DNA of 23,137 bases from a virus: positions 1 to 23,137 of the IMG/VR virus record IMGVR_UViG_3300035034_000074; one strand, given 5' to 3'. Of the stretch, positions 1,129 through 6,886 are shown in pieces. The position numbers and the translations under genes are program-made. The notes under the pieces are model-generated. The model was not told where the DNA came from and did no database searches. It saw only the letters and a program-made list of their open reading frames with translations. Each line of letters opens with the position of its first letter. The stretch's first letter is position 1.

Positions 1129-2601
1129 ATGGATTTCTATACTAATTTTTACTCACGCGGTGATACTCTCTATTATCGTGGTTATAAAGACGGCATTCAG
1201 TGTATGGATACCGCTCAGATTGAGCCCACACTTTACACCACAAAGCGCACCGGCTCCAACGAAAGTACTCAAACTACAATCTTTGGCGAATCTCTTTATC
1301 CTGTCACATTTGAAAATCCTAAAGCCGCAAAAGACTTTATGAATTCTTACAAGTCTAGCGGTGTTAATGTCTATGGGTATCCTCGTTTTGACTATGCAAC
1401 TATTGACGAGTTGTTTCCTGGCGAAATTCAATTTGACATCAGTCTTATACGCATTATGGCAATCGACATCGAGACTACAGTTAACGACGGTTTTCCTGAC
1501 ATCTTCACGGCTAACGAAGCCATAACTCTAATCGCAGCAACATTTCGTGGGCATGTCTATCAGTTTGGTTATAAAGAAACAGCCTTTCGCGCAGATGACG
1601 TAACCTATGTTTGCTGTGAAAATGAAATGCAGATGCTAAAGGCTTTCTTGAAGTTCTATGCGGCTATAAAAGTTGACATCATTACCGGTTGGAATGTTAT
1701 CGGCTTTGACTTACCATACATGTATAATCGCATTATGCTATTGTTTTCTGAAACTGTAGCAAATAAGATGTCTCCGTATGGCCGGTGCCGCAAAACACTT
1801 ACTGAGTTTAAAGGCAAAGAAGGCATCGTTATTGAAATACCTGGCATCCAAGTTCTTGACTATCTTGAGCTGTATCGTAAGTTCGAGCTGTCGCCTCGTG
1901 AAAACTATAAGTTGAGCACTATTGCCCAAGTTGAGTTAGGCGATGACAAAGTAGAATTCGAAGGCACGTTCAAAGATTTCTATACGAACAATTGGGATTT
2001 GTTCTGTGACTATAACGCTCAAGACGCGCGGCTTATTGATCGCCTTGACAACAAACTCAAGTTCATTCAGATTGCATGCACTATGGCATTTGCCGCAAAG
2101 TCTAACTTTGTTGATGTCTACCGCGTTACTCGTATCTGGGATAATATCATTGCAAACTACTTGCGCACAAACAACATGCACTTCGAAAGCTCAACTATTA
2201 GTTTTGGCGAACCGTATGAAGGCGCGTTTGTTAAACCAACTATCCCGGGCCTGTATGAGTGGATCGCGTCCTTTGACGTAGCATCTCTGTATCCATCTCT
2301 AATCATGCAATATAATATTAGCCCAGATACTATTCTCAATCGTAATACATTCCCTAACTTGACAGCACAAGATGTTATCCAAAAAACCGAAATGTTTAAT
2401 TATGCTGTAGAATGTGCAAATGAATATAATGCAACTCTTTGTGCAAATGGCGCAATGTTCTCAAAAGAAAAGCAAGGCTTCTTACCTAAATTAGTTGAGT
2501 TGTTCTTCGCCAAGCGAGTTGCAGCAAAGGCAGAAATGAAAACATGGTCAATTGAAGCTGAGCGCGTCAAAGCTGAAATTTCGTCCCGGCATGCGTACTA
2601 A
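1129..2601 (+). CDS. 43A: DNA polymerase gp43, N-terminal half (exonuclease and palm motif A)
   Basis: A 490-residue protein that is the first half of a family B, T4-type replicative DNA polymerase. The proofreading exonuclease motifs are intact: Exo I D113-I-E115, Exo II N189...F-D194, Exo III Y295-N-A-Q-D299. Polymerase motif A is D383..SLYPS followed by YNISPDT. A 'KQGFLPKLVELFFAKR' segment corresponds to the start of the fingers. The ORF then ends (TAA) in the region that in T4 gp43 is the fingers, before motif B. Motifs B and C are in the next ORF, so neither half can be an active polymerase alone. ATG 1129 has GGAG six bases upstream and a perfect promoter. Bipartite gp43 genes split in the fingers are known in some T4-like Aeromonas phages, so this is probably a functional two-subunit enzyme and not a broken gene. 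Confidence 0.95.
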   Translation: MDFYTNFYSRGDTLYYRGYKDGIQCMDTAQIEPTLYTTKRTGSNESTQTTIFGESLYPVTFENPKAAKDFMNSYKSSGVNVYGYPRFDYATIDELFPGEIQFDISLIRIMAIDIETTVNDGFPDIFTANEAITLIAATFRGHVYQFGYKETAFRADDVTYVCCENEMQMLKAFLKFYAAIKVDIITGWNVIGFDLPYMYNRIMLLFSETVANKMSPYGRCRKTLTEFKGKEGIVIEIPGIQVLDYLELYRKFELSPRENYKLSTIAQVELGDDKVEFEGTFKDFYTNNWDLFCDYNAQDARLIDRLDNKLKFIQIACTMAFAAKSNFVDVYRVTRIWDNIIANYLRTNNMHFESSTISFGEPYEGAFVKPTIPGLYEWIASFDVASLYPSLIMQYNISPDTILNRNTFPNLTAQDVIQKTEMFNYAVECANEYNATLCANGAMFSKEKQGFLPKLVELFFAKRVAAKAEMKTWSIEAERVKAEISSRHAY

Positions 2602-2610
2602 AGAATATGA

Positions 2611-2639
2611 TTGACAATTATTCATACATGTTGTATAAT
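2611..2639 (+). promoter_or_regulatory. Consensus sigma70 promoter between the two halves of gp43
   Basis: TTGACA at 2611-2616 and TATAAT at 2634-2639 with a 17-base spacer: a perfect consensus, sitting in the 67-base gap between gp43A and gp43B. Expected start near 2646 gives a leader of about 23 bases to the GTG at 2669. The bases upstream of the -35 box are A-rich. Confidence 0.9.
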
Positions 2640-2668
2640 AGATCTATCATCAAGCAAGAGGCTGTACC

Positions 2669-3763
2669 GTGTCTAAAAATCTAACTGAGTTGTCTGATAT
2701 TGAATTATCAGCATATCTTACTGAATGTAATAACAATGTCTCTAAGTTTGATAAATCTCAACATAGTGTAAAGATTCTGCTTAACAGTCTTTACGGTGCA
2801 CTCGGGTCTCCATTCTTTCGCATGTATGACAAAGCGCAAGCTGAAGGTATTACTCTATCAGGCCAAGCGGTTGTTACACAATCATATATAGTGTTTAACG
2901 ATTATCTTAACACAATGTTAAAAACTAACACTGACTATGCTGTCGCATCAGATACGGATTCTGTGTATGTTAACTTAACCCCGTTAGTCGATGCGCTCTT
3001 TCCTAAAGATACTTCTCATGATCAGTTAGTTGATGGCATTGTTGGATTATGCGACGGGCACTTCTCTGATATGTTGTCAACGCGCTTTGCTGAATATGCC
3101 ATTGAGACTAATGCGTATACTAATGCCATTGATATGAAGCGAGAGGCTGTTGCTACTGCATGCTTTGTTGCCAAAAAGAATTACGTCATGCGTGTATACG
3201 ATAACGAAGGTACTCGATATGCAACTCCTAAGCTAAAGATTACCGGTCTTGAGGCTATAAAATCTTCTACACCAAAGTTCTTTCAGGATAAGCTAAAAGC
3301 CGGTTATTCGTTTGTTTTTGATAAAACAGAATCCGATGTACATTCTTTTGTTGATAGCGTGTACAAAGAATATGCAGCTCGTCCAATTGAAAGTATTGCC
3401 GCAACTATTTCAGTCACTGAACTTGAGAAATATATCGAAGGTGACGGCTTTAAATCTGGTACTCCGGGGCATGTTAAAGCTGCTGTTATTTACAACAACT
3501 GTATTGATTCGCATAATCTCGGCAATAAGTATCACAAGATTCGTGCAGGCGATAAGATTAAGATCATCTCGCTAAAAATGCCGAATCCATTAAAACAAAA
3601 GTACTTTGCGTATTTAGATAAGTTTCCGCACGAGTTTATTCCAGAAAAATATATTGACCGTGATTCTAACTACGAAAAGTACTTCGTAACCCCACTTAAT
3701 CGAGTTCTTGGTACAGTTAAGTGGAATCATGAATACACTAGTTCGTTGGAGGATTTCTTTTGA
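2669..3763 (+). CDS. 43B: DNA polymerase gp43, C-terminal half (fingers motif B, palm motif C, thumb)
   Basis: A 364-residue protein starting with GTG 2669, preceded by AGAGG (2657-2661) at a seven-base spacing. It begins in the second fingers helix (T4 'NELSNYTESVLNSL...' matches 'LTELSDIELSAYLTE'), then has motif B K35...N39-SLYG, motif C D95-T-D97-SVYV, a KKxY-type segment, and a thumb. The last residues 'SSLEDFF' resemble the clamp-binding tail of T4 gp43 (SLDFLF). Together the halves total 854 residues against 898 for T4, so little or nothing of the enzyme is missing; they are in different frames. The downstream gene starts with TTG overlapping this stop codon (TTGA). The two halves presumably assemble non-covalently; no intein motifs are present at the break. 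Confidence 0.95.
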   Translation: MSKNLTELSDIELSAYLTECNNNVSKFDKSQHSVKILLNSLYGALGSPFFRMYDKAQAEGITLSGQAVVTQSYIVFNDYLNTMLKTNTDYAVASDTDSVYVNLTPLVDALFPKDTSHDQLVDGIVGLCDGHFSDMLSTRFAEYAIETNAYTNAIDMKREAVATACFVAKKNYVMRVYDNEGTRYATPKLKITGLEAIKSSTPKFFQDKLKAGYSFVFDKTESDVHSFVDSVYKEYAARPIESIAATISVTELEKYIEGDGFKSGTPGHVKAAVIYNNCIDSHNLGNKYHKIRAGDKIKIISLKMPNPLKQKYFAYLDKFPHEFIPEKYIDRDSNYEKYFVTPLNRVLGTVKWNHEYTSSLEDFF

Positions 3764-4095
3764 GTATAGATAAATTAATGCACCGCACACTGGTATTTGA
3801 AGATTATCTTAGAGAGGCTCCGTATAACTTTCCAGACTTGATGTTCACTATTACCACAGACGCCGAAGATAAAGATGGTCTTCCTGAGTATAGTAATACT
3901 ATTACTCGCAATCTTTGGGAAGTGTATAACTTAGCTGAGCAGCACTACGCCGAAGTAGTAAAAACACTAACTGTTGCTGTTTTGGACTCTAAGTTAGATT
4001 ATGAGAAACTTAATGAGAAACTTAATAAGAAACTTAAAAAATGCAAGAAGCGCATCAAACGCATCAAGTCTGTGAGTTGTGTTTGTAATTTGTGA
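3760..4095 (+). CDS. Small unknown protein with basic, repeat-encoded C terminus
   Basis: A 111-residue protein of unknown function between gp43B and uvsX. The TTG at 3760 overlaps the gp43B stop (TTGA) and has GGAGG at 3748-3752, seven bases upstream; the next in-frame ATG (3778) has no such site, so TTG is preferred. The N-terminal 75 residues look globular and acidic. The C terminus is very basic and is built from three 12-base tandem repeats (4002-4037) that encode a KL-rich helix, followed by KCKKRIKRIK and a final Cys-containing tail. Translational coupling to gp43B suggests a replication-linked role, possibly nucleic acid binding through the basic tail, but that is inference. I do not recognise the family. 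Confidence 0.75.
   Translation: MSIDKLMHRTLVFEDYLREAPYNFPDLMFTITTDAEDKDGLPEYSNTITRNLWEVYNLAEQHYAEVVKTLTVAVLDSKLDYEKLNEKLNKKLKKCKKRIKRIKSVSCVCNL
4002..4037 (+). repeat. Three tandem 12-base repeats inside a coding region
   Basis: TGAGAAACTTAA occurs at 4002-4013 and 4014-4025, and a one-base variant TAAGAAACTTAA follows at 4026-4037. The unit is four codons long, so it adds four residues per copy to the basic C terminus of the gene at 3760 without shifting the frame. It is a likely site of copy-number variation. Confidence 0.85.
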
Positions 4096-4120
4096 TTGTT
4101 TCTAGTCTGTTACATTTACT

Positions 4121-4174
4121 TAAGGAGTGACGATGGAGTGATCTTTATATAATATAGTCGGATCGAGCCCCGAC
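4121..4174 (+). promoter_or_regulatory. uvsX leader: two-codon ORF, -10-like box and small hairpin
   Basis: The 119 bases between the small gene and uvsX hold no real gene. They contain TAAGGAG (4121-4127) followed after five bases by ATG GAG TGA (4133-4141), a start with only two codons. Next is TATAAT (4148-4153) without a good -35 box; the best is GTGACG at 4127-4132 with only 15 bases of spacing. Last is a five-base-pair hairpin GTCGG/CCGAC (4157-4161 with 4170-4174) that lacks a T-run. A weak or phage-factor-dependent promoter for uvsX is plausible but not shown. Confidence 0.4.
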
Positions 4175-4214
4175 GTTAACTAAAACACAGCTCTAAACTA
4201 TCTGAGGAAACAAA

Positions 4215-5126
4215 ATGTCTAAACTGCTAGAAAAATTGGCAAAAGCCAGTACCATCAAACACTCTGCTATATTAGGTGAGTCTAAGTTTTTTACAAGTAA
4301 AGATGAAACTGTTACTGATCTGCCAATTCTAAACTTGGCGTTCTCAGGTTCTCTTAAAGGTGGATTTGCGTCCGGTCTTACAATGATTGCGGGTCCGTCC
4401 CGCCACTTTAAATCTAATCTTGCGCTATTCTGCATCAAGTCTTATCTCACTAAACATAAAGATGCAGTCTGTCTGTTTTATGATTCTGAGTTTGGCGCAC
4501 CACCTCCGTATCTTGCTGCATTTGGTATTGATACTTCGCGCGTACTTCATACTCCAATTATCCACATTGAACAGCTAAAGTTCGATCTGATTGCACAACT
4601 TGAGAATATTGAGCGCGGAGATAAAGTCATTGTCTTTATTGACTCTGTTGGCAACTTGGCATCTAAGAAAGAAACTGATGATGCGTTAGAAGGTAAGTCT
4701 GTCGCAGATATGACTCGAGCCAAACAGCTAAAAAGTTTGTGGCGTATGGCTACACCACAGTTCACTGTAAAAGACATCCCATGTATTACAATCAACCACA
4801 GCTATGAAACTATGGAAATGTTTTCTAAAGCAATCATGTCTGGTGGATGTCTATTGCCGGGTCAGAAGATTAAAATGGCCGATGATACTTTACGCCCAAT
4901 TGAGCGTATTGCTGTTGGCGATATGGTAAAAACACTGCATGGTGATAAAGAAGTAACACATACTTGGAATCCTGAAACACTAGCAGTTGGTACTCCAGAA
5001 TGTTATCAGATTGTGTTTGAGAATGGTAGTTCTATTGAATGCTCAGCTGAACACAAGTTTCTTGTGGACGGAGAATGGGTCATGGCCAAAAATCTGAAAG
5101 ACGATGATGACTGCCAAGAACTTTAA
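4215..5126 (+). CDS. uvsX: UvsX recombinase N-extein fused to N-terminal split intein
   Basis: Residues 1-211 are the first part of a T4-type UvsX (RecA-like strand-exchange ATPase): Walker A GPSRHFKSN (60-68), 'AVCLFYDSEFG', Walker B VIVFID (138-143), 'SVGNLASKKETDDAL', and 'NHSYETMEMFSKAIMSGG'. The family then continues with TGPMYS, but here residue 212 is a Cys that opens a 92-residue N-intein ending in a stop at 5124-5126. The intein has block A (C-LLPGQKI..., GDMV) and block B (IECSAEHKFLV, with S-x-x-H in place of the usual T-x-x-H) and ends in an acidic tail (KDDDDCQEL). The C-terminal half is the separate gene at 5983. ATG 4215 is preceded by GAGGA at 4204-4208. The product should be inactive until spliced in trans. 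Confidence 0.95.
   Translation: MSKLLEKLAKASTIKHSAILGESKFFTSKDETVTDLPILNLAFSGSLKGGFASGLTMIAGPSRHFKSNLALFCIKSYLTKHKDAVCLFYDSEFGAPPPYLAAFGIDTSRVLHTPIIHIEQLKFDLIAQLENIERGDKVIVFIDSVGNLASKKETDDALEGKSVADMTRAKQLKSLWRMATPQFTVKDIPCITINHSYETMEMFSKAIMSGGCLLPGQKIKMADDTLRPIERIAVGDMVKTLHGDKEVTHTWNPETLAVGTPECYQIVFENGSSIECSAEHKFLVDGEWVMAKNLKDDDDCQEL
4848..5123 (+). other. N-intein (92 residues) of split intein in UvsX
   Basis: It starts at the Cys codon 4848-4850, directly after the conserved extein residues S-G-G. Visible motifs are catalytic Cys1, the block A glycine-aspartate turn (VGDMV), and block B with the buried His (SAEHKF). There is no in-frame endonuclease domain. The final 12 residues are strongly acidic, complementing the basic start of the C-intein, as in other natural split inteins where charge drives association. 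The length fits known N-fragments (about 90-105). Confidence 0.92.
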
Positions 5127-5142
5127 CTAAGAACGTGAAAGC

Positions 5143-5150
5143 TATAAATA
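5143..5150 (+). promoter_or_regulatory. T4-type late promoter (TATAAATA) for the homing endonuclease
   Basis: TATAAATA at 5143-5150 is an exact match to the T4 late promoter -10 consensus and is the only exact copy I found on the plus strand. Expected start is near 5156, with GGAGG at 5173-5177 and ATG at 5182. T4 homing endonucleases such as I-TevI are also driven by internal late promoters, so the placement is meaningful. Confidence 0.75.
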
Positions 5151-5181
5151 ACTCCAGTACCTAAATCATTCTGGAGGTTGT

Positions 5182-5964
5182 ATGCACTGTGTATATCTGT
5201 TGTCTTTTACGAATCGCTTGAAACAAAATACTCCACCTTACTATTATGTTGGTTCCAAATCGGACTTTAGTTTCACGGACGGTAGATTGTATGATAAAGC
5301 CGGTAAGCTATATGCTGGGTCCTCAAGATACAACGGTTGGAAGGATATTGTTAAAGATGAATACGAAGTAAGTATTCTATCAACTTGGGAAGAGTATAAA
5401 GACTGCATTGTCGCAGAGTATGACGAGCAGATTGCCAGAAATGCTGTTGCTTCACCTGAATACTTTAATCTTAGTTTTGCAGCATGTAATTCTTTCGCTA
5501 ATCCACTGTTTGCGTTGTTTAAACATTCGGTGACTGGCAAACGAGTTAGGTTAGAGATAGACCATGCGATGGTATTGAGCGGCGAATATGTTGGTATCAC
5601 GAAAGGCAACAAACTTAGTAAAGAACATCGTATGAAAATTTCTAATGGCCAATTGGGAGATAAAAATCAATTCTTTGGTCGTAAACATACTGATGAATCA
5701 TTACAGAAAATGTCTGCTGCTTTGTTGGGTAAACCGACAAGTGATCTCCAAAAACAATCCGTCTCTAAACGTCATAAGGGAGTTCCTAAAAGCAAAGAAC
5801 AGAGAGCAAAGATTGGGCGACCGGGTTTAGTAATGCTGAAGAATGTAATTACGTTAGAAGTAATTCGTGTGTCTAAAGAAGATCCGCGGTATTCAGATCC
5901 AGATTGGATGGCATTAACTCGTTACACTAGCATACAGAAAAAGCTTGCACTACTACAAATTTAA
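5182..5964 (+). CDS. Free-standing GIY-YIG homing endonuclease with NUMOD3 motifs
   Basis: A 260-residue protein lying between the two halves of uvsX. The N terminus is a GIY-YIG nuclease domain: VYLL (4-7) and YYVGS (21-25) replace GIY and YIG, a GSSR segment follows at 46-49, and E79 in 'VAEYDEQIA' is a good candidate for the catalytic glutamate. Residues of about 145-215 are a run of NUMOD3-type DNA-binding repeats ('LSKEHRMKIS', 'GRKHTDESLQKMSAALLGK', 'KGVPKSKEQRAKIG'), as in phage Seg and I-TevI-like enzymes. It likely cuts intein-free uvsX alleles near the SGG/TGG codons so that the element is copied by recombination. GGAGG (5173-5177) precedes ATG 5182, with a late promoter upstream. 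It is not fused to either intein half, which is the hallmark of a fractured-gene arrangement. Confidence 0.92.
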   Translation: MHCVYLLSFTNRLKQNTPPYYYVGSKSDFSFTDGRLYDKAGKLYAGSSRYNGWKDIVKDEYEVSILSTWEEYKDCIVAEYDEQIARNAVASPEYFNLSFAACNSFANPLFALFKHSVTGKRVRLEIDHAMVLSGEYVGITKGNKLSKEHRMKISNGQLGDKNQFFGRKHTDESLQKMSAALLGKPTSDLQKQSVSKRHKGVPKSKEQRAKIGRPGLVMLKNVITLEVIRVSKEDPRYSDPDWMALTRYTSIQKKLALLQI

Positions 5965-5982
5965 ACACAAGAGTGATAATTG

Positions 5983-6087
5983 ATGAAGATTAAAAAAATT
6001 AACAAGATGGGCAAGCGGGACGTATACGACATCTCCGTGAAAGACGCAGAACATTATGTTCTAGAGAATGGTGTAGTTACTCACAAT
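5983..6087 (+). other. C-intein (35 residues) of split intein in UvsX
   Basis: It encodes a 35-residue C-intein ending in the Asn codon 6085-6087, followed by the +1 Thr codon 6088-6090. The length and break position (between blocks B and F) match canonical natural split inteins. The N-terminal 12 residues are highly basic, opposite in charge to the tail of the N-intein. Confidence 0.92.
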
Positions 6088-6525
6088 ACAGGTGGCATGT
6101 ATTCTTCGTCTAACGTCTTTATGTTAGGACGTGCTCAAGACAAAGATGGTACTGAGCTGCAGGGATATAAGTTTACTATTAACATCGAAAAGTCTCGCCA
6201 GGTTCGAGAGAAATCTAAATTTCCATTACTCGTATCATTTGAGAAAGGTATCAGCAAATACTCTGGTCTTCTTGACTTAGCTATTGAGCTGGATTTTGTA
6301 GTTAAGCCGAAGATGGGTTGGTACTCTCGTGTATTAGTTGATGAAAAGACAGGAGAAATAGCAGAAGACAAAAACTGGCGAGCAAAAGATACACAATGCG
6401 AAGAGTTCTGGGGACCGTTACTTAACTCAGCTGCGTTTGAGAAAGCATGTAACGATCGGTACCAGTTGGGTAACACAAATTCAGAAGAAGACACAGTAGA
6501 CCTAGGAGAATTAAATGACGAATAA
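5983..6525 (+). CDS. uvsX: C-terminal split intein fused to UvsX C-extein
   Basis: The protein starts at ATG 5983, 18 bases after the endonuclease stop; a TTG at 5980 is in frame but less likely. Residues 1-35 are a C-intein: a basic start (MKIKKINKMGKR), block F (DVYDISVKDAEHYVL), and block G (VVTHN), ending in the required His-Asn. The next residue, Thr36, is the +1 nucleophile and native UvsX sequence (TGGMYSS, T4 TGPMYS). Residues 36-180 are the rest of UvsX: 'GTELQGYKFTINIEKSR', 'KSKFPLLVSFEKGI', 'YSGLLDLAIEL', 'VVKPKMGWYSR', 'WRAKDTQCEEFWGPLL'. Trans-splicing with the upstream product would give 211 + 145 = 356 residues, close to T4 UvsX. The end overlaps the next gene by 11 bases. Confidence 0.95.
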   Translation: MKIKKINKMGKRDVYDISVKDAEHYVLENGVVTHNTGGMYSSSNVFMLGRAQDKDGTELQGYKFTINIEKSRQVREKSKFPLLVSFEKGISKYSGLLDLAIELDFVVKPKMGWYSRVLVDEKTGEIAEDKNWRAKDTQCEEFWGPLLNSAAFEKACNDRYQLGNTNSEEDTVDLGELNDE

Positions 6526-6886
6526 TAATGAAGTAACACCAACCCACGCAGCGACGCATCCTGCATATTCCGTTTATTCCGGTGAGTGCGGTATTGATCC
6601 TGCGCCGTTTCGTATCGACGAAGGCAAGTTTGCCGGCACAGTTTTTAACTATGCGACGGTAAAAGTAAAAGACGATGATGGCGGCTCTATTGATTACAAA
6701 CTTGATTTTATGCAGATCGTTGAAGACGGTGGCTCTGTCACGAAATTTACAAGTGATGAGGTTAATGGAGAGTTTTTTGAAACAGTAGCATCTCCTATTC
6801 TACTTAATATGCTTGCACAGTTCGTAGAGCGAGAAGCCAGCGGCGCTGTCGCAGAACCCAAATTTGTTGAGGTTGACGAACTGTGA
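6515..6886 (+). CDS. Unknown small protein, first of a probable tandem paralog pair
   Basis: A 123-residue acidic protein of unknown function. ATG 6515 lies inside the end of uvsX and has AGGAG at 6504-6508. After a low-complexity N terminus ('PTHAATHPAYS') it reads DEGKFAGTVFNYATV, IDYKLDFMQIVEDG, then FFETVASPILLNMLAQFVE. The same three blocks occur in the next gene in order and at similar spacing, suggesting an old duplication. There is no signal peptide or membrane segment. Its location between uvsX and gp41 suggests a recombination or replication accessory, but nothing in the sequence states a function. Confidence 0.75.
   Translation: MTNNNEVTPTHAATHPAYSVYSGECGIDPAPFRIDEGKFAGTVFNYATVKVKDDDGGSIDYKLDFMQIVEDGGSVTKFTSDEVNGEFFETVASPILLNMLAQFVEREASGAVAEPKFVEVDEL

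What the first reader, a model, noticed from the sequence alone, without database searches (positions are those of the whole stretch)
4215..6525. Fractured uvsX: naturally split intein with a free-standing homing endonuclease between its halves
Seen: UvsX is interrupted exactly at SGG/TGG. The upstream ORF ends with a 92-residue N-intein (Cys1, block B SxxH, stop), and the downstream ORF begins with a 35-residue C-intein (block F, terminal His-Asn, Thr +1). A complete GIY-YIG gene lies between with its own start and stop. Known: split inteins in 'fractured genes' with an intervening endonuclease gene were described from metagenomic phage-like loci (for example gp41 helicase and ribonucleotide reductase). 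I am not aware of a well-studied UvsX case paired with a GIY-YIG/NUMOD3 enzyme. Inferred: active UvsX (356 residues) needs protein trans-splicing, giving a possible post-translational control point on phage recombination.
Basis: partly seen in the sequence, partly recalled or inferred. Interest (0 to 1): 0.95.

Follow-up and report, generated by a model that had tools for sequence, protein, structure and literature searches.

The report
Split-intein uvsX with resident homing nuclease
A phage recombination gene is broken in two by a selfish DNA-cutting gene, and the two protein halves carry matching intein pieces that should stitch them back together; the same broken gene turns up in many T4-like phages in whole, split, decayed and apparently re-fused forms.

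Summary
UvsX (211 + 145 aa) is interrupted at SGG|TGG; the first ORF ends in a 92-aa N-intein, a GIY-YIG/NUMOD3-type nuclease gene follows, and the next ORF starts with a 35-aa C-intein. The halves map to T4 UvsX 3io5 positions 186|187 without gap or overlap.

It is no artefact. 88 distinct intein-bearing uvsX loci, phage isolates included, keep Cys1, His-Asn and Thr/Ser+1 in 88 of 88, with intein dN/dS below 1 in 278 of 278 usable pairs. Coliphage HY03 against two intein-less relatives shows a clean 1,304-bp insertion. Trans-splicing is strongly inferred, not observed.

Known kind: fractured gene with split intein; a GIY-YIG precedent exists (AceL NrdHF). I found no paper naming a UvsX split intein in the open-licence library.

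The family is the surprise: the same site holds contiguous, split-empty, and GIY-YIG-, HNH- or PD-(D/E)xK-like-nuclease versions; one contiguous intein keeps a fossil ribosome site and start codon, best read as re-fusion; GIY and HNH nucleases share a tail; nuclease leaders carry TATAAATA (T4 late promoter) in 18 of 36 dissimilar cases. Control of UvsX by splicing has no support.

The parts
4215..4847 (+). UvsX N-extein, 211 aa, ends SGG
   Evidence: phrog_97 UvsX E 1e-64 for the ORF; 3io5 T4 UvsX E 5e-72, chain 5-186
4848..5126 (+). N-intein, 92 aa (Cys1, SxxH block B), then stop
   Evidence: Pfam Intein_splicing profile 35-90, E 6e-5, below cut-off; Cys1 88 of 88, block-B Ser 88 of 88, His 87 of 88
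5143..5150 (+). TATAAATA, T4-type late promoter sequence (consensus recalled), upstream of the nuclease gene
   Evidence: only copy in the window on either strand, though 1.83 expected by chance; exact copy in 18 of 36 dissimilar nuclease leaders against a dinucleotide-shuffled mean of 0.87
5152..5176 (+). possible hairpin (arms 5152-5157 and 5171-5176) overlapping the Shine-Dalgarno GGAGG 5173-5177
   Evidence: fold, not more stable than shuffles (z -0.40); release by late transcription inconclusive
5182..5964 (+). free-standing GIY-YIG-type homing endonuclease gene, 260 aa
   Evidence: phrog_7504 homing endonuclease E 2.2e-18; Y5, R12, Y22, G24, E79 invariant in 14 aligned proteins, window included; best fold matches I-TevI catalytic domain, weak (E 0.3)
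5605..5715 (+). NUMOD3 motif of the endonuclease (residues 142-178)
   Evidence: Pfam PF07460 E 2.6e-9, above cut-off
5809..5961 (+). C-terminal tail (from KIGRPG) shared with HNH-type nucleases at the same site; the zinc-finger-like end seen in many relatives is missing here
   Evidence: profile of 22 HNH tails finds the window protein at E 1.1e-10
5983..6087 (+). C-intein, 35 aa, ends VVTHN
   Evidence: Pfam Intein_splicing profile 122-155 E 2.1e-5, below cut-off; His-Asn 88 of 88
6088..6525 (+). UvsX C-extein, 145 aa with stop, Thr+1
   Evidence: PF21134 T4_UVSX_C E 1.5e-27; 3io5 E 1.2e-47, chain 187-322

Best explanation
uvsX of this T4-like phage is a fractured gene. Two separate proteins, UvsX(1-211)-IntN and IntC-UvsX(212-356), are translated from two ORFs. 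The intein pieces associate, and a class 1 splicing reaction (Cys1 thioester, transfer to Thr+1, Asn cyclisation) joins the exteins into a 356-aa UvsX. The free-standing GIY-YIG/NUMOD3 endonuclease between them is the mobility agent: it should cut intein-less uvsX alleles at or near SGG|TGG, so that repair copies the whole 1,240-bp unit. It carries a T4-type late promoter, so it is probably made late, after UvsX. Shown: anatomy, conservation, purifying selection, a clean insertion in a related phage, and exchange, loss and replacement of intein and nuclease among relatives. Inferred: trans-splicing, cleavage of the empty site, and late timing.
For: Catalytic residues kept in 88 of 88 distinct loci (Cys1, His-Asn, Thr/Ser+1). 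The scan patterns did not select His-Asn in the 61 loci found through the N-intein nor Cys1 in the 20 found through the C half, and they are kept in 61 of 61 and 20 of 20. Intein dN/dS: 278 of 3,828 pairs had pS 0.1-0.6; median 0.28, maximum 0.50, none above 1; the eight pairs with least synonymous change 0.04-0.08. Seven contiguous relatives of the same intein; one of them models at pLDDT 94.1 and matches the gp41-1 intein structure best, E 1.2e-9. Empty site: HY03 against G2540 and NIC06P2, 1,304-bp insertion at GGT|ACA with no duplication, flanks 94-100% per 100 nt. Mobility: L070 and L077 have extein stretches 80% and 72% identical but the first 255 nt of the N-intein 255/255; L054 and L122 have extein stretches 99% identical but that N-intein stretch 60%. 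Late-promoter enrichment.
Against: No splicing or cleavage assay exists here. Each intein piece scores below Pfam's cut-off. The window's nuclease does not reach the Pfam GIY-YIG model and its fold match to I-TevI is weak. The hairpin in the window is not more stable than shuffles, and release of the ribosome site by late transcripts was not significant over the 15 leaders that could be scored (10 of 15, p 0.15). The nuclease lacks the zinc-finger-like end of many relatives, so it may be decaying. The 88 loci are related, not independent.
Confidence: 0.92

Rival explanations
1. The halves assemble non-covalently into a two-subunit UvsX, as split NrdA of Aeh1 and split gp43 of phage 25 do, and the intein pieces are relics.
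For: Precedents for working split proteins without inteins (PMC2988022, passages); the DNA polymerase of this very window is split without inteins.
Against: Relic inteins would not keep Cys1, Ser/His of block B, His-Asn and Thr/Ser+1 in 87-88 of 88 loci under purifying selection, nor exist as contiguous inteins in uvsX. The split falls inside the recombinase, at 186|187 of 3io5.
Confidence: 0.05
2. An RNA-level intron joins the halves before translation.
For: GIY-YIG and NUMOD3 nucleases often sit in group I introns (general knowledge).
Against: Rfam finds no match up to E 1 in 4200-6530; the flanking pieces are conserved intein coding sequence in frame with the exteins; contiguous forms read straight through.
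Confidence: 0.01
3. Sequencing or assembly error created the stops.
For: The window is an IMG/VR contig of unnamed origin.
Against: Same structure in independently sequenced isolates HY03, Pm5461, TG1, Thanatos-1, VmeM-32 and EniLVp02 and in 81 distinct split loci, window included.
Confidence: 0.005
4. Splicing is a regulatory switch on phage recombination rather than a tolerated cost of a selfish element.
For: Homing depends on RecA or UvsX (PMC2988022, passages), so a delay in splicing would matter.
Against: Contiguous, split, nuclease-bearing and intein-less forms interchange among close relatives, with no sign of a conserved need for the split.
Confidence: 0.08

Closest known systems
AceL NrdHF split intein (Hoffmann et al. 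2020, PMC7891396; abstract and passages seen)
   Different: host gene nrdHF, class 3 intein without an N-terminal nucleophile; here UvsX and class 1 features (Cys1)
Fractured-gene split inteins of Dassa et al. 2009 (gp41-1, NrdJ-1, IMPDH-1)
   Same: two genes each with half an intein and a free-standing nuclease between (recalled; the paper is not held); gp41-1 is the nearest solved fold to the contiguous relative
   Different: UvsX host; GIY-YIG-type nuclease here, whereas their new nuclease family is of another type (recalled)
mobE of Aeromonas phage Aeh1 and segB/I-TevI of T4 (PMC2988022, passages)
   Same: nuclease gene embedded among early or middle genes with a late promoter and a hairpin over the ribosome site
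   Different: no intein there; Aeh1 NrdA works unspliced; the hairpin is not established here
T4 segA (PMC2988022, passages)
   Same: GIY-YIG nuclease that cuts uvsX
   Different: lies next to uvsX, not inside it; cut position not compared
HEG domain exchange in vibriophages (PMC10448857, passages)
   Same: nuclease and DNA-binding parts exchange between homing genes
   Different: the exchange shown in those passages is among T5orf172 genes; here GIY-YIG and HNH heads share one tail at one target site

Membership tests
Class 1 intein | N-terminal Cys or Ser | tested here: met
   Cys1; 88 of 88 loci
Class 1 intein | block B T/SxxH | tested here: met
   SAEH; Ser 88 of 88, His 87 of 88
Class 1 intein | C-terminal His-Asn and Cys/Ser/Thr +1 | tested here: met
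   HN 88 of 88; +1 Thr 85, Ser 3
Class 1 intein | Hint fold | tested here: met
   for the contiguous relative L067 (pLDDT 94.1), gp41-1 intein E 1.2e-9; the window's two-chain form was not modelled
Class 1 intein | Pfam Intein_splicing gathering score | tested here: not met
   23.3 bits (N-intein alone) and 24.8 bits (C half) against 35.8, each piece scored alone; a statistical threshold, not a defining biochemical feature
Class 1 intein | splicing activity | not testable with these tools
   needs co-expression or mass spectrometry
Fractured-gene split intein | two separate ORFs, each extein half fused to an intein half, split at the usual breakpoint | tested here: met
   92 + 35 aa; unmatched Pfam profile positions 91-121 between the pieces
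Fractured-gene split intein | free-standing homing endonuclease gene between | tested here: met
   ORF 5182-5964, phrog_7504 E 2.2e-18
Fractured-gene split intein | nuclease of the new family described in 2009 (not required: AceL NrdHF has a GIY-YIG) | tested here: not met
   window nuclease is GIY-YIG-type with NUMOD3; among 62 intervening ORFs 4 hit MTES_1575 and 2 DUF559; that family's signature is recalled, so this row is approximate
GIY-YIG homing endonuclease | Tyr, Tyr-Ile-Gly, Arg and Glu of the catalytic site | tested here: met
   Y5, Y22, G24, R12, E79 invariant in 14 aligned proteins; roles by analogy, recalled
GIY-YIG homing endonuclease | GIY-YIG fold | tested here: inconclusive
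   top two fold matches are I-TevI catalytic domain but E 0.3 and 1.0; Pfam GIY-YIG not reached by the window protein
UvsX recombinase | sequence match to T4 UvsX over both halves | tested here: met
   3io5 E 5e-72 and 1.2e-47
Group I or II intron | ribozyme core | tested here: not met
   no Rfam match up to E 1

The most novel reading that the evidence does not exclude
The uvsX intein site is a revolving door. Different nuclease families invade one intein at its endonuclease point and split it, then decay or are swapped. The intein can later re-fuse into a contiguous form by deletion. A late promoter delays the nuclease until spliced UvsX, the recombinase that homing needs, is already made, so the element depends on the very protein it interrupts.
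Probability: 0.45. Interest if true: 0.75.

Novelty: new member of a known kind. Interest (0 to 1): 0.6.

Why it matters
How split inteins arise, and whether they can become whole again, has been hard to catch in the act. This one site holds whole, split, nuclease-bearing, decayed and apparently re-fused forms, some in phages whose uvsX extein stretches are 97-99% identical, so the steps can be read and tested. It includes isolates that grow on laboratory E. coli, supplies many new split inteins for protein engineering, and suggests that PHROG families 8337 and 18112 are halves of one fractured protein.

Tried and rejected
RNA intron: rejected. Assembly error: rejected by recurrence. Non-covalent assembly: kept as a weak rival. 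Hairpin release of the ribosome site: tested and inconclusive. TATAAATA count in the window alone: not above chance (1 seen, 1.83 expected); only the family-wide position is informative. Promoter and terminator scan of 3700-6700: sigma-70-like sites no more than in shuffles (5 found, 7.8 expected), so no promoter of uvsX is claimed. Profile of seven N-inteins against solved structures: the two best hits (Tako8) are short-repeat matches; gp41-1 at E 1.2e-4 is the meaningful one. Tail specificity: 17 of 19 loci with 55 or more tail residues lie in uvsX inteins, but the query came from uvsX nucleases, so this is biased; of 61 loci with a weaker match, mostly to the zinc-finger-like end, only 7 do. 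The extein tree is a quick one with 26 open branches of 79, so change counts are rough.

Nuclease classes rest mainly on motifs that I chose: among the 62 intervening ORFs Pfam finds NUMOD3 in 49, HNH in 14, HNH_5 in 5, SegE GIY-YIG in 3 and GIY-YIG in 1. Eight of the 62 ORFs start inside, or within 20 bases of, the N gene, so some starts are uncertain. 'Distinct' means different DNA between Cys1 and the final Asn. Of 163 loci examined 102 were distinct; 13 lacked a mapped end and one stands for the intein-less controls L008 and L009, leaving 88. Leaders: 58 of 62 had a spacer of 1-130 bases; 55 of 62 entered the stricter test, 36 of them dissimilar; of the 18 with the promoter, 15 could be scored for the ribosome site.

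Literature: 'split intein' + 'UvsX' (0 papers); 'uvsX' + 'intein' (9 papers; passages seen in all nine: none reports a UvsX intein); 'uvsX' + 'homing endonuclease' + 'interrupted' (3; passages seen in two; PMC3037559 listing only); GIY-YIG + 'split intein' (7; passages in three); 'fractured genes' + 'split intein' + 'homing endonuclease' (28, of which 20 listed; passages in three); further listings. Only open-licence papers are held, so a report elsewhere cannot be excluded; Dassa 2009 is not held.
Full report
OBSERVATION. ORF 4215-5126 carries UvsX residues 1-211 and a 92-aa N-intein; ORF 5182-5964 encodes a 260-aa nuclease; the C-intein of 35 aa is best started at ATG 5983 and is followed by 145 aa of UvsX. 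The window is a whole 23,137-base IMG/VR virus record, much shorter than the T4-like genomes, so probably a fragment.

HOST PROTEIN AND SITE. The two extein halves match T4 UvsX 3io5 at chain positions 5-186 and 187-322 with no gap or overlap, so the element sits inside the recombinase. A RecA-family paper notes that two adjacent glycines (RecA 211 and 212) are the positions fully conserved out to Rad51, RadA and UvsX (PMC2663765, passages); the SGG before the intein may be that pair, but I did not align them. PHROG 8337 ('DNA repair protein') matches the N half plus part of the intein, and PHROG 18112 ('recombinase') matches the C-intein plus most of the UvsX C half: the public families look like halves of one fractured gene.

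HOW COMMON. In 50,697 phage records the N-intein matches 34: 25, database duplicates included, in uvsX of T4-like phages of Escherichia, Salmonella, Proteus, Klebsiella, Yersinia, Vibrio, Pseudomonas, Shewanella and others (the same 25 match over 94% or more of the UvsX-intein ORF), and 9 Prevotella Lak-phage records at 36-37.5% identity. None is labelled an intein in that table; one VmeM-32 note mentions HintC. Two IMG/VR scans gave 145 and 101 relatives, the best 80 kept each, so these are lower bounds. Of 163 loci examined, 102 were distinct and 88, window included, are intein-bearing with both ends mapped.

CATALYTIC RESIDUES AND SELECTION. Cys1 88 of 88, block B Ser 88 and His 87 of 88, block F Asp 88, terminal His-Asn 88, +1 Thr 85 or Ser 3. 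The scan patterns could have selected for His-Asn, so the fair counts are 61 of 61 for His-Asn in loci found through the N-intein and 20 of 20 for Cys1 in loci found through the C half. dN/dS is below 1 in 278 of 278 pairs with usable synonymous divergence (of 3,828 pairs), and 0.04-0.08 in the eight with least synonymous change; the pairs are not independent. A contiguous relative (L067) models as an intein (pLDDT 94.1) with gp41-1 as best solved match, E 1.2e-9, followed mainly by other inteins and Hint domains among the 50 rows shown.

EMPTY SITE AND MOVEMENT. Coliphage HY03 differs from G2540 and NIC06P2 by a 1,304-bp insertion exactly between GGT and ACA; flanks are 94-100% identical per 100 bases. 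L070 and L077 share the first 255 nt of the N-intein 255/255 although their uvsX extein stretches are 80% (500 nt) and 72% (276 nt) identical; L054 and L122 have 99% identical extein stretches but 60% identity over the same N-intein stretch. I read the first as recent transfer of the intein and the second as replacement of one allele by another.

STATES OF THE SITE. By my classes: HNH nuclease 33, split without an intervening ORF of 80 aa 19, GIY-YIG 15, contiguous 7, PD-(D/E)xK-like 6, SegE-like GIY-YIG 4, decayed 3, other GIY-YIG 1. On a quick extein tree the classes need 37 changes; contiguous against split needs 7 changes for 7 rows, nuclease against none among split loci 17. Of the 19 nuclease-free split loci, 9 keep a nuclease DNA remnant at E <= 1e-5, 2 more at about 1e-3, and 8 show none. 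In the series L070 (HNH nuclease), L077 (only the last about 50 bases of the nuclease left) and L067 (contiguous), the contiguous intein contains GAGGAAATTATG, in the split forms the ribosome site and start codon of the C half, here read as EEIM. The best reading is re-fusion by deletion: in the relatives the GAGGAAA bases also code the end of the nuclease (CKxRK), and L067 lies among HNH-bearing loci on the tree. The reverse order, a nuclease inserted just before an existing GAGGAAATTATG, is not formally excluded. L061 and L064 also have an internal MKI where split forms start; the other four contiguous inteins do not. The window's nearest relative, L090 (78% over extein columns), holds a PD-(D/E)xK-like nuclease instead of GIY-YIG.

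THE NUCLEASES. The window protein matches NUMOD3 (E 2.6e-9) and PHROG homing endonucleases; the GIY-YIG catalytic positions are invariant in 14 aligned proteins, but Pfam GIY-YIG is not reached and the fold match to I-TevI is weak. A profile from 22 HNH-type tails finds all 12 GIY-type proteins from which I had taken a tail (window E 1.1e-10), and the reverse profile finds HNH proteins with E-values as low as 1e-28; PD types are not found with confidence. Three of 15 GIY loci (L002, L004, L006) lack the tail. So two unrelated nuclease heads share one tail at one target, which I read as a target-specific DNA-binding part (inference; one search is consistent but biased, and the zinc-finger-like end alone is widespread elsewhere).

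TIMING. Exact TATAAATA lies in the leader of 37 of 58 nuclease genes (single-base shuffles mean 0.77) and in 18 of 36 dissimilar leaders; dinucleotide shuffles give a mean of 0.87, maximum 4, and control stretches 0 of 36 and 0 of 36. That this octamer is the T4 late promoter is recalled. T4 I-TevI, segB and Aeh1 mobE use late promoters with a hairpin over the ribosome site (PMC2988022, passages). In the window the octamer is at 5143-5150 and a possible hairpin at 5152-5176, but the hairpin is not unusually stable, and the predicted unmasking is not significant over 15 leaders (10 of 15, p 0.15). Late transcription is therefore likely, translational masking unproven.

MECHANISM. Most likely: two precursors, trans-splicing to 356-aa UvsX, and a late-made nuclease that converts intein-less alleles. 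Homing depends on RecA or UvsX (PMC2988022, passages), so the element may depend on the protein it interrupts. A regulatory role for splicing is not supported.

NOVELTY. Fractured genes with split inteins are known, and so is a GIY-YIG example (AceL NrdHF). UvsX as host was not found in print with the searches, in an open-licence library only. I file the locus as a new member of a known kind; the interchange of states at one site is its most interesting feature.

Noticed in passing
window 1129-3763: DNA polymerase B is also split (490 and 364 aa) with a 67-base gap and no intein; the gap holds a perfect TTGACA-17-TATAAT at 2611-2639. VmeM-32 (L006) also has its polymerase annotated in several pieces.
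   Followed up: partly
L243 3971-4450 (Prevotella phage Lak-B8): A contiguous intein in a GG|C...HN|SG context, similar to the uvsX site, in a short open frame that begins after a stop also under code 15; host gene not identified.
   Followed up: partly
L003 4411-5064 (Shewanella phage Thanatos-1): The nuclease in the uvsX intein is a different GIY-YIG gene that overlaps the N half.
   Followed up: partly
L005 4425-5435 (Yersinia phage TG1): The nuclease gene seems broken into an unannotated GIY-YIG frame and a tail ORF, with TATAAATA in a hairpin loop before it.
   Followed up: partly
L155 and L157: Extein stretches 92% and 99% identical but different nuclease types (SegE-like and window-like GIY-YIG) in the intein.
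   Followed up: yes
PHROG 8337 and PHROG 18112: Two public families that appear to be the two halves of the fractured uvsX, named as separate proteins.
   Followed up: no
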